Source: Vibrio splendidus (GTDB lineage Bacteria; Pseudomonadota; Gammaproteobacteria; Enterobacterales; Vibrionaceae). From it: DNA of 64,000 bases. This document shows, piece after piece, positions 42,753 to 48,004 of the stretch. Location of the stretch: assembly GCF_024347615.1 (NCBI RefSeq), contig NZ_AP025509.1:434001-498000 (forward strand), written 5' to 3'. A program made the position numbers and the translations under genes. Under the pieces are notes generated by a model, which ran no database searches, had not been told where the DNA came from, and saw nothing but the letters and a program-made list of their open reading frames with translations. Position 1 is the stretch's first letter; each line of letters begins with the position of its first letter.

Positions 42753-43098
42753 GGAAGTTCACAACACCAATATAAATACACGAATGATGGCAGGATGGCC
42801 GGTGTGTATTTTAGGATGTGCCCCGTTGGGCGGGCGACAATATAAACACCTTACCGTATAGGGTCAAGCATTGGATTTATTGAGTTTCACTAGCTTTGAG
42901 GTAGGGGCCGATTCTGATGGTCAAAACACAACACTAACTCTCGTAAGTTATTGATTTATTGTAAATCATGCTAGTTGGATAATTTCTATATTTGCCACGC
43001 TAATCACTAAGGTTGTGGTATAAGTGATTGTTATGGAAAGACAAAGGCTAGTACAATTGGTGACTAATGAACTAGGCAGAATTTTCTGTAGCACAGCT
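42753..43098. other. intergenic region upstream of the MATE gene and cassette-like segment
   Basis: Contains the minus-strand promoter/leader of the MATE gene (a GC-rich piece near 42790-42840) and AT-rich sequence running to the core-like site at 43099. A 28-codon ORF at 43033 is not supported by an RBS. Confidence 0.45.
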
Positions 43099-43105
43099 GT
43101 TATAC
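43099..43105 (+). mobile_element. integron core-like site GTTATAC at the left edge of a cassette-like segment
   Basis: GTTATAC fits GTTRRRY apart from one base and is the exact reverse complement of GTATAAC at 43437-43443. In an integrated integron cassette the left core and the inverse core of the cassette's own attC have this relationship. Confidence 0.5.
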
Positions 43106-43121
43106 AAATACAGGGATGAAA

Positions 43122-43430
43122 ATGGAAATTACAGTTAAGAAAATATCGAAAAGGTCTCTTTTCAAAATGCTCTTTATCGGCTTTAGCCTGAGCTTCTTTG
43201 TCTTCTTTTTAGTATGTGGTATCGCATCTATATTTGGTGCGGAGACTGTAAAGTGGGATGAAACACCAGTAACGGGCATATCAGGCCTGCTGCTCGCCTT
43301 GGCTATGTGGCCAATATTTAGTTTGTTTCTAACATTATTTATGTGGTGCTTTGTAGCATTTGGCTTGTGGATTTACTCTTTGGTTAAACCTCTGAACCTG
43401 CTCTTTAAAGAAACTGCAGAGCACAATTAA
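43122..43430 (+). CDS. small membrane protein, ~102 aa, integron-cassette-like
   Basis: Two hydrophobic segments (LFIGFSLSFFVFFLVCGIASIF and LALAMWPIFSLFLTLFMWCFVAF) with a short periplasmic loop. I prefer the ATG at 43122 (AGGGA six bases ahead) to the one at 43116, which would leave no spacing. It lies between a GTTATAC core-like site and an attC-like element, so it looks like the gene of a single integron cassette. No family recognised. Confidence 0.6.
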   Translation: MEITVKKISKRSLFKMLFIGFSLSFFVFFLVCGIASIFGAETVKWDETPVTGISGLLLALAMWPIFSLFLTLFMWCFVAFGLWIYSLVKPLNLLFKETAEHN

Positions 43431-43436
43431 CCACTT

Positions 43437-43554
43437 GTATAACAAGAAGGTTAAGTTTGATTCACAACGTTTGGCACTTTCAATTCAAGCCGATTTTGAG
43501 TTTATGGCAAAATGGATTAGCCAAGGTGTTAGCATTCAATTGAGGTCGTAATGT
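43437..43554 (+). mobile_element. degenerate integron attC site (Vibrio repeat type), ~118 bp
   Basis: Starts with the inverse core GTATAAC and continues AAG..GTTAAGTTTGATTCACAACG-TTGGCA, then TTTATGGCA and GCCAAGGTGTTAGCATTCAATTGAGGTCGTA. The pattern follows Vibrio attC repeats (TAACAA...CAACG.TTGGC...GGCGTTA). The two ends form an imperfect dyad (TTGATTCACAACG-TTGGC against GCCAAGG-TGTTAGCATTCAA). The right core is degenerate (CGTAATG for GCGTTATG), so it is probably inactive. The ATG of the next gene begins right at this junction, as is usual in cassettes. Confidence 0.6.
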
Positions 43555-44054
43555 ACGAAGTTGTTTATAATATAAAGTTTGAAGGGTTGTGGTCACTTTA
43601 TTTCGCTCTTCCCGGTTTGTTATTTATATATATATCGGCTGAAGGTTATAAAAATAGAAAGAAATTATCCAGTTGGGATGTGCAAGTTGTTGGTAAGCCA
43701 GCGACTGAACAAAGCATAGGTATGGTTTTCAAAATACTCCTTATTTTTTCAGTGCTTTGGACTGCTTTAAGTGGGGGCAGCTTAATAATTCAATTATATT
43801 CCCTTTTATCTGATTACGGTCAGGGTGAATATGATGTTGTTGAAGGAAGTGTTGAGAACTTTAACCCGATACCTTATGGAGGGCATCAACAGGAAAGTTT
43901 TACTGTTGAGGGTGTTAAATTTAGTTATTCAGACTTTAGTATCTCCCCTGGTTTTAATAATACTAAGTCGCATGGCGGGCCTATAAGAAAAGGGTTAAGG
44001 GTGAAGGTATCACATATAGATAATGTAATCCTGAAGCTTGAAGTGATGCGCTAA
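43551..44054 (+). CDS. hypothetical membrane protein, DUF3592-like, 167 aa
   Basis: Two membrane helices (LYFALPGLLFIYISA and MVFKILLIFSVLWTALSG) followed by an extracytoplasmic domain of beta pattern (YDVVEGSVENFNPIPYGGHQQESFTVEGVKFSYSDF). The last part recalls DUF3592-type proteins; not certain. Its ATG directly follows the attC-like right end, so it may derive from a second cassette, but no attC is seen after its stop. Confidence 0.6.
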   Translation: MYEVVYNIKFEGLWSLYFALPGLLFIYISAEGYKNRKKLSSWDVQVVGKPATEQSIGMVFKILLIFSVLWTALSGGSLIIQLYSLLSDYGQGEYDVVEGSVENFNPIPYGGHQQESFTVEGVKFSYSDFSISPGFNNTKSHGGPIRKGLRVKVSHIDNVILKLEVMR

Positions 44055-44162
44055 ACACCGTGGTTTTTTATGCTACTTAGGTCTCTACTTAAACAGCATA
44101 GTTTTCCTATTCTGTTTGATTGTATAAAAGCGACCCTACGGAAATTATTGGAGGATGTGTCG

Positions 44163-44753
44163 ATGACTTGTCTTAAGTGCCAAGAAAAAAGTGTTACTGA
44201 TTTTTGTGTTAAAGTGCCTAAAAAATTTCTTTGGTTTTCATGGTATGGATATCAAAGACAGACCTTATGTCGAGAACATTTATTATCGGAATATCGCAAG
44301 TCATTTACTACGTCACAAGCACGATTGGTTGTCTTCTCCCCCGACTTTGAATACAAAAGAAAAGGTCTCTATCAATACCTTCCAACTCCATTGCGTGAAT
44401 TTGAAGAGTTTGCCCTTCACGATAATAAACAAGGGGAAAGAAAAGAAGATTTAATTGCTCTGAAAGAGACCTTTCGAAAATTACGTGGGTTTTGCGAGAA
44501 ATGCGGCAAACCGGCACAGGTTGCTTTTTTTTGCACTGGTTCTTTTGCATGGGAACAAAAACCTTTTTCACCATGCACGACAAGTGATCAGGTCATCATT
44601 TCTTCTATCTGTGCGCAGCCTGAAATTCTGTGTATGCAGTGCTGTTATTCGCAGGTTGAACCCTCATTATCCGCATGCGATTTAAAGCGAATTGGTGGGA
44701 TTCACGCTCTTCCTCAACATGGAGAGCATTGTATAATTGGGGTTGAAGAATGA
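44163..44753 (+). CDS. Cys-rich protein with paired CxxC motifs, ~196 aa, unknown function
   Basis: Start chosen at ATG 44163 with GGAGG eight bases ahead; the ORF extends to 44070 upstream without an RBS. Paired cysteines (MTCLKCQ; GFCEKCGKPA; ILCMQCCYSQ) suggest zinc-ribbon-like folding. No membrane segment. I do not recognise a family. Lies in the accessory stretch, 108 bp after the DUF3592-like gene. Confidence 0.6.
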   Translation: MTCLKCQEKSVTDFCVKVPKKFLWFSWYGYQRQTLCREHLLSEYRKSFTTSQARLVVFSPDFEYKRKGLYQYLPTPLREFEEFALHDNKQGERKEDLIALKETFRKLRGFCEKCGKPAQVAFFCTGSFAWEQKPFSPCTTSDQVIISSICAQPEILCMQCCYSQVEPSLSACDLKRIGGIHALPQHGEHCIIGVEE

Positions 44754-44873
44754 AACATGATTATATTTTGCAGACCCGGTTAAAGATGGGGCACACAAAT
44801 ATTACATACTAGTTCTGTTTTTGGTTGTCTCTAAGGCACTGTTGAAAGCGTCCCTTAAGGGCTCAGCTCAAAT

Positions 44874-44981
44874 TTATTGCCACAAAGCTAGTAGAAAAAC
44901 AAAAAGACCAATCCCAAGCGTTACTTTTAGAAGCAAGCCAAGAGGGGCTCCACCTTTTGGCGCTTTATTGCAACATACCAT
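44874..44981 (-). CDS. 35-residue single-helix membrane protein behind a MerR-type promoter
   Basis: ORF begins MVCCNKAPKGGAPLG and ends ...LLALWQ: a short N-terminal part with vicinal cysteines (CC), two lysines and a GG, then one ~19-residue hydrophobic helix with few charges. AGGA lies seven bases before the ATG. No known family that I recall. The case for a real gene is the RBS, the good membrane helix and, above all, a MerR-family promoter about 30 bases upstream. Function is unknown; metal or redox response is suggested by the promoter and the cysteines. Confidence 0.6.
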   Translation of the reverse strand: MVCCNKAPKGGAPLGLLLKVTLGIGLFVFLLALWQ

Positions 44982-45014
44982 AATCAGTTCCTAATTCATC
45001 GTTGGTTTCACTCA

Positions 45015-45045
45015 ACCTTAAACCTTTCCCTTACGGTAAGGTCAA
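45015..45045 (-). promoter_or_regulatory. MerR/CueR-type promoter with operator
   Basis: Reading the minus strand: -35 TTGACC (45045-45040), a 19-bp spacer, -10 TAAGGT (45020-45015). The overlong 19-bp spacer and the TAAGGT -10 are those of mer-type promoters. The spacer region contains the dyad ACCTT-N11-AAGGT (45042-45022), the same spacing and half-sites as CueR operators of copA. It lies between the gcvP terminator and the 35-residue protein. No merR-family gene is in the window. Confidence 0.7.
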
Positions 45046-45076: not shown

Positions 45077-45104
45077 AAAAGCGAACCAAGTGGTTCGCTT
45101 TTGT
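45077..45104. terminator. bidirectional terminator after gcvP
   Basis: AAAAGCGAACCA pairs perfectly with TGGTTCGCTTTT around a two-base loop, with A/T runs on both sides. Confidence 0.85.
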
Positions 45105-45124: not shown

Positions 45125-48004
45125 TTAGTCTTCGTAGTTGTCGATGCTTGGGCAAGAACAGATTAGGTTACGGTCGCCGTATACGTTGTCTACACGGTTA
45201 ACTGTTGGCCAGTACTTCGAGTTCTTCGTTGCTTTCGATGGGAAGCAAGCCAGTTCGCGAGAGTAAGGGCGATCCCATTCTGCGCCTGAAAGGTCAACTT
45301 GAGTGTGCGGTGCGTTCACTAGAGGGTTGTTGTCTAGTGGCCATTCACCGGCTTTCACTGCTGCCATTTCGTGACGGATTGCGATCATCGCTTCACAGAA
45401 ACGGTCTAGCTCTTCTAAATCTTCAGATTCAGTTGGCTCAACCATTAGCGTGCCTGCTACTGGGAAAGACATCGTAGGTGCGTGGAAACCGAAGTCCATT
45501 AGACGCTTAGCAATATCTTCTTCGCTGATGCCTGTGTCTTCTTTAAGCGGACGAATATCGATAATACATTCGTGCGCTACGCGGCCGTTAGTGCCACGGT
45601 AAAGAACAGGGTAGTGAGGACGTAGTTTCTCCATCACGTAGTTCGCGTTCAGAATCGCTACTTTCGTTGCGTCTGTTAGGCCAGGTTCGCCCATCATTGC
45701 GATGTAAGCCCAAGAGATCGGTAGGATTGAAGCACTACCTAGATCTGCAGCTGATACCGCGTAGTCAGAACCTTGTACACCGTTTTCGATGTGACCTGGT
45801 AGGAAAGGTGCTAGGTGCGATTTAACGCCGATAGGACCCATACCCGGACCGCCACCACCGTGTGGGATACAGAATGTTTTGTGTAGGTTCAAGTGAGATA
45901 CGTCTGAACCGATGAAGCCAGGTGAAGTTAGACCTACTTGAGCGTTCATGTTCGCGCCGTCTAGGTAAACCTGACCGCCCGCTGCGTGTACTTGTTCACA
46001 CACTTCTTTCACTTGCTCTTCGTATACGCCGTGCGTAGAAGGGTAAGTGATCATGATGCTTGATAGGTTTTCTTTGTGCTTCTCGATTTTCGCTGCTAGG
46101 TCTGTCATGTCGATGTTGCCATCTTCATCACACTTAACAACCACTACCTTCATTGAAACCATTGATGCTGTTGCAGGGTTAGTACCGTGCGCAGAGCTTG
46201 GAATCAGACAAACGTTACGGTGAGCTTCACCGCGGCTTGCGTGGTAACGTTGAATCGCGATTAGACCTGCGTATTCACCAGATGCACCAGAGTTAGGCTG
46301 TAGTGAGAAATCGTCGTAACCAGTGATTTCACATAGCTTCTCTTTTAGATCTTTCGCTAGCGCTGTGTAGCCTGCTGCTTGATCAAGAGGTGCGAATGGG
46401 TGAATTGAACCAAACTCAGGCCATGTTACTGGAATCATCTCAGCAGCAGCGTTCAGCTTCATCGTACAGCTGCCCAGTGGGATCATGCCGTGCGTTAGTG
46501 AGAAGTCTTTGTTCTCAAGCTGTTTTAGGTAACGCATCATTTGCGTTTCGCTGTGGTGCGTGTTGAATACTGGGTGAGTTAGGAACTCTGATTCACGACG
46601 GCAGTTTTCTGGAATTGCTGCAAACTCGTTTGATGCAATGTCAGAAGATAGTGCTTGAACGTCTTCTTTAACGTCGAAGATTGCGAACAGTGCGTTCACG
46701 TCGTCGATCGTTGTTGTTTCATCTAAGCTGATACCGATCTTGCCAACAAGTCGACGAAGGTTGATGTCTGCTGCTTGTGCTTTCGCGTACAGTGCATCTG
46801 TCTTCTCTTCAGAGTTGATTGTGATGGTATCAAAGAAGCTGTTGTTTGTTAGCTCGTAACCCGCTTTAGTCAAGCCAGCAGCTAGGATAGCTGTCATGTG
46901 GTGTGTACGACGAGCAATAGTACGTAGGCCTTCTGCACCGTGGTAAACCGCGTAGAAAGACGCCATGTTTGCTAGAAGTGCTTGAGCTGTACAGATGTTC
47001 GATGTCGCTTTCTCGCGGCGGATGTGTTGCTCACGAGTTTGCATTGCCATACGTAGTGCTTGGTTACCGTGCGTATCGATAGATACACCAATTACACGAC
47101 CTGGCATTGTACGCTTATGCTTTTCACGAGTACCCATGAATGCAGCGTGTGGACCGCCGTAACCCATAGGAACGCCGAAACGTTGCGCTGAACCGATGAC
47201 TACGTCTGCGCCCATTTCGCCAGCAGGCTTAAGTAGAGCAGAAGCAAGTAGGTCAGTAGCCACTGTAACCAGTGTTTTGTTAGCTTGAGCTTTCGCAATG
47301 ATGTCTGTTAGGTCACGCACTTCACCCGTTGTACTCGGGTATTGAAGAAGCGCACCAAATACGTCTTGCTCTGGAAGTGTTTCAAGAGCACCAACCATTA
47401 CTTCAAAACCGATGTACTCAGCACGAGTTTTAACAACTTCTAGTGTTTGAGGGTGAACATCGTCAGCAACGAAGAATACTTTGCTCTTGCTTTTGCCAGC
47501 ACGCTTACACAGTGTCATTGCTTCGCCAGCCGCTGTCGCTTCATCAAGAAGGGATGCGTTCGCGATTTCCATACCGGTTAGGTCCATTACCATTTGTTGG
47601 TAATTGAGTAGAGCTTCAAGGCGACCTTGAGAAATCTCTGGTTGGTATGGTGTGTAAGCTGTGTACCAGCCTGGGTTCTCTAAAACGTTACGTAGAATAA
47701 CGTTTGGAGTGAATGTGTTGTAGTAGCCTTGGCCAATGAAAGTACGTTTCACTTGGTTTAGGTTAGCGATCTCTTTAAGAGAGGTCAGCATGTCCATTTC
47801 GCTCAGTGGCGCAGCAAGTGTCATTGGTTTTTCAAGACGGATTTGTGCAGGAACCGTTTCGTCGATCAGAGCGTCTAAGCTAGTCGCGTTGATCGCATCA
47901 AGCATTTTTTGCTGGTCTGCTTTATTAGGGCCGTTATGACGAGCAACAAACTCGTTTTGAGTACCCAAGTCTTTTAGTAATTGGCTTTGAAGTAATTCAG
48001 TCAT
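45125..48004 (-). CDS. gcvP: glycine dehydrogenase (decarboxylating), P-protein of glycine cleavage, 959 aa
   Basis: PLP enzyme that decarboxylates glycine and passes the aminomethyl group to lipoyl-GcvH. Starts ...[11 protein letters not shown] lysine is Lys709 in [18 protein letters not shown]; glycine-rich loop after it is complete. Length equals the family (~957). It follows gcvH with an 88-bp gap holding a stable hairpin. Ends in a strong terminator. Confidence 0.97.

What the first reader, a model, noticed from the sequence alone, without database searches (positions are those of the whole stretch)
44874..45045. MerR/CueR-type promoter driving an unannotated 35-residue membrane protein
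The promoter has every mark of the MerR family: -35 TTGACC, 19-bp spacer, -10 TAAGGT, and a dyad ACCTT-N11-AAGGT identical in spacing to CueR operators. About 30 bp after it begins MVCCNKAPKGG..., a single-helix protein with vicinal cysteines and a proper RBS. Nothing larger follows, so the microprotein is the obvious target. It could be a metal-stress microprotein, for example acting on a copper exporter or membrane protein.
Basis: partly seen in the sequence, partly recalled or inferred. Interest (0 to 1): 0.82.

Follow-up and report, generated by a model that had tools for sequence, protein, structure and literature searches.

The report
Copper-regulon vicinal-cysteine membrane microprotein
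Vibrios and their relatives carry an overlooked membrane protein of about 35-39 residues with a fixed pair of cysteines, usually placed under a copper-sensor type promoter or inside a copper-pump operon, so it is probably a missing small part of the cell's copper defence.

Summary
The 35-aa ORF (44874-44981, minus strand) is a real gene: 35 distinct related sequences give uncorrected pN/pS 0.115. It belongs to a family found in no library searched, M-x-C-C-N-x-x-P-x-G-G plus one membrane helix, present in 121 of 196 Vibrio genomes at a loose E<=10, elsewhere in Vibrionaceae, rarely outside. Its promoter is one of three CueR-type promoters (0-2 mismatches) in the 5.9-Mb host genome; the others precede copA and a CusB/CusF-type efflux operon. 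Of 135 members fetched, 124 have a MerR-type promoter start, 122 with a dyad of at least 5 of 10 pairs, against 17 of 635 control upstreams; of the 11 without, 10 lie in or beside CopA, Cus or DUF411 genes. The 17 promoter-bearing copies heading a MerR-copA operon, and 10 of 10 copies in 8 genomes without CueR, have a different, 20-bp-spacer operator: the operator follows the regulator. Proposed mechanism, inferred and untested: a membrane-tethered cytosolic Cu(I) ligand or adaptor serving CopA. No copper response was measured.

The parts
45040..45045 (-). -35 element TTGACC
   Evidence: sequence; whole-genome pattern search
45022..45042 (-). CueR-type operator dyad ACCTT-N11-AAGGT
   Evidence: same outer half-sites as the host's copA promoter
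45015..45020 (-). -10 element TAAGGT after a 19-bp spacer
   Evidence: 19-bp class base counts
44989..44992 (-). ribosome-binding site AGGA, 7 nt before ATG
   Evidence: sequence; GAGGA at a like place in orthologue L012
44874..44981 (-). 35-aa CCN-family membrane microprotein: MVCCNKAPKGG tail plus one membrane helix (model: residues 14-34)
45077..45102 (-). terminator-like hairpin after gcvP: likely upstream boundary of the unit
   Evidence: 3 found, 2.0 expected in shuffles; 11 pairs followed by T-rich tail

Best explanation
This is the third member of the host's CueR regulon, beside copA and the cus-type efflux operon. When cytosolic Cu(I) (or Ag(I), Au(I)) rises, CueR bound at the 19-bp-spacer promoter switches on a one-gene transcript for a 35-aa protein (regulation inferred from sequence; about 0.93 likely). 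The protein sits in the inner membrane by one helix with its short N-terminus in the cytosol (inferred from charge bias and a model). The invariant C3-C4-N5-x-x-P8-x-G10-G11 tail binds Cu(I) through its vicinal cysteines. By lateral contact it hands the metal to, or keeps it near, the membrane-level entry of the CopA ATPase, and so acts as a membrane-tethered metallochaperone or adaptor of copper export (inferred; about 0.4 likely). Shown: gene reality, family, promoter association, operon association with CopA and Cus, operator-regulator covariation. Inferred: copper response, metal binding, topology, partner.
For: Three CueR-type promoters (0-2 mismatches) in the host, at this gene, copA, and an operon with OEP and CusB/CusF domains. 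CueR present above its curated cut-off. Of 135 members 124 have a MerR-type promoter start, 122 with dyad >=5 of 10; 118 of the 124 have the -35 at -75 to -52; controls 17 of 635. The gene heads MerR-CopA operons in 17 promoter-bearing loci and cus-type operons in L178, L224, L225 (CusC also seen after L103, L105), and sits beside CopA in L226 and L223. 10 of 10 copies in 8 genomes lacking CueR have the 20-bp-spacer operator: 7 next to their own MerR, 3 lone copies. pN/pS 0.115. CC kept in all 103 distinct proteins counted (one of 104 without a start residue was left out, and the search profile itself favours CC). N-flank charges 164 K/R against 27 D/E, 6 charged residues after the helix. Model: helix 14-34, mean pLDDT 82, tail about 63.
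Against: No expression, copper response, metal binding or partner was measured. 107 of 135 copies have no copA, cus or DUF411 gene within about 1.6 kb upstream and 4.5 kb downstream; many loci hold only 1.5 kb each side, and CopA as direct partner is guilt by regulon. The CopA homologues looked at (3 of 3) already carry three N-terminal CxxC motifs, so a further chaperone is not obviously needed. 75 of 196 Vibrio genomes have no hit even at E<=10, while CueR passes its cut-off in 176 of 196, so the gene is dispensable to the regulon. One member (L217) has neither promoter nor copper neighbour. Single-chain models cannot test docking.
Confidence: 0.5

Rival explanations
1. Regulatory subunit of the CopA pump: the helix docks on the P1B ATPase and tunes its stability or rate, as MgtR-type small proteins are thought to act on larger membrane proteins (recalled); the CC tail senses Cu(I) rather than delivering it.
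For: Operon with CopA in 17 promoter-bearing loci, and CopA beside the gene in L223 and L226. Weak helix-only similarity to MgtR (5 of 33 members, best E 0.0015).
Against: The MgtR score is 14.8 bits against a cut-off of 35 for the window protein and covers 12 residues of the helix; other helix families score as weakly. Conservation is in the tail, not the helix.
Confidence: 0.22
2. Membrane-surface Cu(I) buffer (thiol sponge): abundant CC tails bind Cu(I) at the inner membrane and protect lipids and exposed Fe-S enzymes, with no specific partner.
For: Lone copies outside other copper loci in most members fetched (107 of 135); tail highly conserved, helix poorly.
Against: The invariant N5, P8, G10, G11 around the cysteines suggest more than two thiols. 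The family also heads pump operons.
Confidence: 0.17
3. The protein acts on something other than export: it blocks or re-tunes a copper importer, a cuproenzyme (cbb3 oxidase) assembly step, or a membrane protease during copper stress.
For: Single-helix microproteins often act on larger membrane proteins (CydX, MgtR and others; recalled). DUF411 neighbours (recalled as periplasmic CopG-type copper proteins) show that the linked genes are broader than export.
Against: No oxidase or importer gene was noticed beside it, but neighbourhoods were read by eye (the latter cut) or against a 9-protein copper reference set, so this was not a real search.
Confidence: 0.09
4. The conserved unit is the RNA or merely a decoy operator, and the ORF is incidental.
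For: The transcript would be short and alone. The stretch after the gene shows no special fold (z 0.53), which does not help this reading.
Against: pN/pS 0.115 and variable columns 31, 16, 9 at codon positions 3, 1, 2; CC-N-P-GG kept among members at about 34-60% identity.
Confidence: 0.02

Closest known systems
CueR regulon (copA and others) of Gammaproteobacteria
   Same: Operator half-sites, 19-bp spacer, CueR gene present, operator shared with copA in the same genome.
   Different: The target is a 35-aa membrane protein, not an ATPase, oxidase, periplasmic protein or HMA chaperone (usual targets recalled).
CopZ / HMA metallochaperones
   Same: Proposed job: cytosolic Cu(I) ligand feeding CopA.
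   Different: Vicinal CC instead of CxxC, membrane-anchored, about half the length of the CopZ models (62-68 positions); no CopZ or HMA match.
MgtR and similar single-helix stress microproteins
   Same: Size, single helix, stress-type promoter (inferred here).
   Different: NCBIfam MgtR score below cut-off; CC tail not known in MgtR and other control (both recalled).
Mercury transport proteins MerF/MerT
   Same: MerR-type control and vicinal cysteines with membrane helices (recalled).
   Different: One helix, CC outside the membrane in the tail, no Pfam match.
Cox17 (eukaryotic copper chaperone)
   Same: Cu(I) bound by adjacent cysteines (recalled precedent).
   Different: No sequence relation found; soluble; different compartment.

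Membership tests
CueR regulon | CueR-type promoter: long (19-bp) spacer with ACCTT-N11-AAGGT dyad between -35 and -10 | tested here: met
CueR regulon | a CueR orthologue in the same genome | tested here: met
   TIGR02044 169.2 bits and 171.5 bits, cut-off 147.4
CueR regulon | same operator type shared with copA in the genome | tested here: met
   copA promoter TTGACCTTACCCTTACGGTAAGGTTTATGTT
CueR regulon | operator changes where the regulator is absent or replaced | tested here: met
   10 of 10 copies in 8 CueR-less genomes are 20-bp class; the class call is a heuristic and weak for L043 and L206
CueR regulon | CueR binding and Cu/Ag/Au-dependent transcription | not testable with these tools
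   needs bench work
CopZ/HMA metallochaperone | HMA domain with MxCxxC | tested here: not met
   no Pfam match for the window protein, no HMA match among 33 members; CC instead of CxxC
MgtR | score over the curated NCBIfam cut-off | tested here: not met
   14.8 bits against 35
MerF/MerT | Pfam membership and two or more helices | tested here: not met
   no match; one helix in the model
Cox17 | sequence relation to Cox17 | tested here: not met
   no match in Pfam or in solved structures (only photosystem PsbI helices at E 5.1-6.8)

The most novel reading that the evidence does not exclude
The Vibrionaceae possess an undescribed kind of copper metallochaperone: a 35-39-residue, single-helix protein that presents a vicinal-cysteine Cu(I) site at the cytoplasmic membrane face and passes copper laterally to P1B ATPases. 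It is mobile enough to be wired to two different copper-linked MerR regulators with two different operators.
Probability: 0.35. Interest if true: 0.8.

Novelty: new variant of a known kind. Interest (0 to 1): 0.62.

Why it matters
CueR regulons are known for pumps, oxidases, periplasmic proteins and HMA chaperones (recalled). Here one of three CueR-type promoters in the genome serves a protein absent from the family libraries searched, yet nearly constant in its tail from Vibrio to Photobacterium, Aliivibrio and a Psychromonas. If it binds Cu(I) at the membrane it would bear directly on how copper reaches membrane pumps, and it would be a minimal model for studying copper transfer. The 19-bp/20-bp operator switch is also a clean natural example of a gene following its regulator.

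Tried and rejected
Rejected: noncoding or chance ORF. MgtR membership. HMA, Mer and Cox17 membership. An RNA element just after the gene (z 0.53). A larger downstream target.

Led nowhere: the search for homologous proteins (too short, database off), so no protein-database census was made. Search of solved structures gave only membrane-helix noise. tblastn of the window protein in plasmids gave no match; a diverged member gave 4 partial matches. The distant member in G474 was not found in the other 11 genomes of its family searched.

Literature: searches timed out. Some searches answered, listing 10, 15, 15, 12 and 12 of 561, 55, 167, 311 and 226 papers; no listed title or abstract start describes this protein. 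Only passages of PMC8456105 were read. This is weak evidence of absence; subscription papers and small-protein databases were not searched.

Dropped rows: 202 hits were collapsed to 136 by identical protein plus 90 bp upstream; hits with under 90 bp upstream were dropped; one hit without the CC motif (L134, from G333, E 8.2e-4) was dropped as spurious, giving 135. Not every hit was fetched, so the 135 are a sample. The 105-member tally is superseded. One search left out 1 of 104 proteins. The output was cut.

Full report
What is there. The minus strand between gcvP (45125-48004) and a run of plus-strand ORFs holds a complete MerR-type promoter, a ribosome-binding site and a 35-codon ORF. The promoter is TTGACC, 19 bp, TAAGGT, with a 21-bp dyad ACCTTACCGTAAGGGAAAGGT between the boxes. 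A terminator-like hairpin after gcvP lies upstream (3 such sites found in the region, 2.0 expected), so the unit probably stands alone.

Is it a gene. The protein was sought in 196 Vibrio genomes. 121 have a match at E<=10; 32 of these are close orthologues (E<=3.5e-13, 74-100% identity), many more are more distant, and the weakest are doubtful. Thirty-five distinct coding sequences of close members (some from Aliivibrio) give mean uncorrected pS 0.386 and pN 0.044, with 31, 16 and 9 variable columns at codon positions 3, 1 and 2. Alignments of 22 and 33 diverse members share invariant M1, C3, C4, N5, P8, G10 and G11 and a nearly invariant K19, while the helix drifts. No Pfam family matches the window protein and no NCBIfam family passes its cut-off; scans of 33 members gave only weak, mostly helix-type matches.

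How far it spreads. A profile search found matches in 112 of 197 Vibrionaceae genomes and 5 of 13 genera at E<=0.1, a few of them weak and probably false. The next (G333, E 8.2e-4) lacks the CC motif and the rest look like chance. In the class, 1 of 369 matched at E<=0.001, the host itself. The 58 named loci are Vibrio, Aliivibrio, Photobacterium, one Vibrionales bacterium and one Psychromonas.

The host's CueR regulon. The pattern TTKACCTT-N11-AAGGTNTAANNT occurs with 0, 1 and 2 mismatches once each in 5.88 Mb; up to 3 mismatches there are 46 matches against 42 for the backwards control. The three sites stand before this gene, before a CopA-type ATPase followed by a DUF411 gene, and before a small Met/Cys-rich ORF followed by an outer-membrane efflux protein and a CusB-CusF fusion. 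A CueR over its curated cut-off and a separate ZntR are present. In the 32 genomes with the close orthologues, the exact pattern TTGACCTT-N11-AASSTNTA finds 2-5 sites each, 95 in all by hand sum, with 1 control hit; one of the sites in each of the 32 is this gene's (positions compared). What the other sites precede was checked in the host only.

The association over the family. Across the 135 members fetched (104 distinct proteins), 124 have a TT(G/T)AC promoter start in the 160 bp upstream, 122 of them with at least 5 of 10 dyad pairs, and 118 of the 124 with the -35 at -75 to -52. Upstreams of other long ORFs in the same loci gave 17 of 635, 9 of them in that position; some of those may be true MerR sites. 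Of the 11 members without the pattern, 5 are at cus-type operons, 4 at CopA operons, 1 beside DUF411, and 1 (L217) has neither. By eye, cus-heading copies have a degenerate dyad.

A natural regulator swap. Seventeen promoter-bearing copies head an operon [CC protein]-[MerR]-[CopA]. All 17 were classed as having a 20-bp spacer, with half-sites such as ACCTATGT or ACCTGTGA. Of 106 lone copies with a promoter, 103 are 19-bp class and 3 are 20-bp class. CueR passes its cut-off in 176 of 196 Vibrio genomes. Of the 20 others, 10 have the CC gene at E<0.01. Two of these (G148, G181) have a CueR-like protein 1-2 bits under the cut-off, and their lone copies are 19-bp class. The other eight have no CueR-like protein above 112.4 bits, and all eight have the other MerR. 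Ten of ten copies in these eight are 20-bp class: 7 next to their own MerR and 3 lone (L043, L048, L206). Three of the ten (L182, L179, L189) were tied to these genomes by equal contig length. The 19/20 call is a heuristic on the -10 match and is weak for L043 and L206. In the 5 local MerRs aligned, a Cys stands where the host CueR has Ser in the sensor loop, and a CC stands near the C-terminus, so their metal is inferred from the CopA beside them, not shown.

Mobility. The cassette lies on a conjugative V. crassostreae plasmid, on a V. alginolyticus plasmid next to Tn3 transposase genes, and beside TnsD/TnsE genes in L041. No listed feature lies under the match in 4 of 4 plasmid hits; those tables are incomplete by their own description.

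How it probably works. Charges are biased to the N-terminal side of the helix (164 K/R and 27 D/E before, 6 charged after, over 103 proteins). With the model (helix 14-34, loose tail) this suggests N-in topology with the CC tail in the cytosol. Cytosolic Cu(I) induction plus an invariant vicinal dithiol plus repeated operonic linkage to CopA make a Cu(I)-binding adaptor of export the best reading, ahead of a CopA regulator, a thiol buffer, or another membrane target. Metal binding, orientation and partner are inferred; only sequence facts are shown. Cox17 as precedent for adjacent-cysteine Cu(I) binding is recalled, not tested. Against a tight need for it: 75 of 196 Vibrio genomes show no match at all, and most members are lone genes.

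Verdict. The family appears undescribed in the resources reached (Pfam, NCBIfam, and the listings of literature searches); subscription literature and small-protein databases were not searched.

Noticed in passing
window 42753-44873: The interval between this gene and the MATE-like transporter gene looks like a variable insertion site: other genomes hold different genes there (transposase-like, toxin-antitoxin-like by eye, unknowns, output cut). Here it holds three ORFs (104, 167, 227 aa) without Pfam match.
   Followed up: partly
window 44070-44753: 227-aa plus-strand ORF with several cysteine pairs (such as FCEKCGKP) and no Pfam match.
   Followed up: no
L040:3756-4220, L049:3659-4072, L047, L044, L036: A MerR subgroup with a C-terminal CCLIE motif and 20-bp-class operators stands beside CopA. 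The two scanned (L040, L049) fall under every NCBIfam cut-off shown; in 8 genomes it occurs without CueR.
   Followed up: partly
L041:505-3660; L203: The CC gene-MerR-CopA cassette sits next to Tn7-like TnsD/TnsE genes and, on a plasmid, Tn3 transposase genes.
   Followed up: partly
L087:4549-5013: First ORF of the host's cus-type operon: 154 aa, rich in Met, Cys and His by eye, no family over a cut-off.
   Followed up: no
L039:3313-3429 and L202: A second, diverged CC copy lies between the DUF411 gene and the first CC copy in a copper cluster: tandem paralogues.
   Followed up: partly
L231 (G474): Distant member MGCCSRPPSGSG... after a DUF411 gene in another family of the order; not found in the other 11 genomes searched there, so possibly acquired.
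   Followed up: partly
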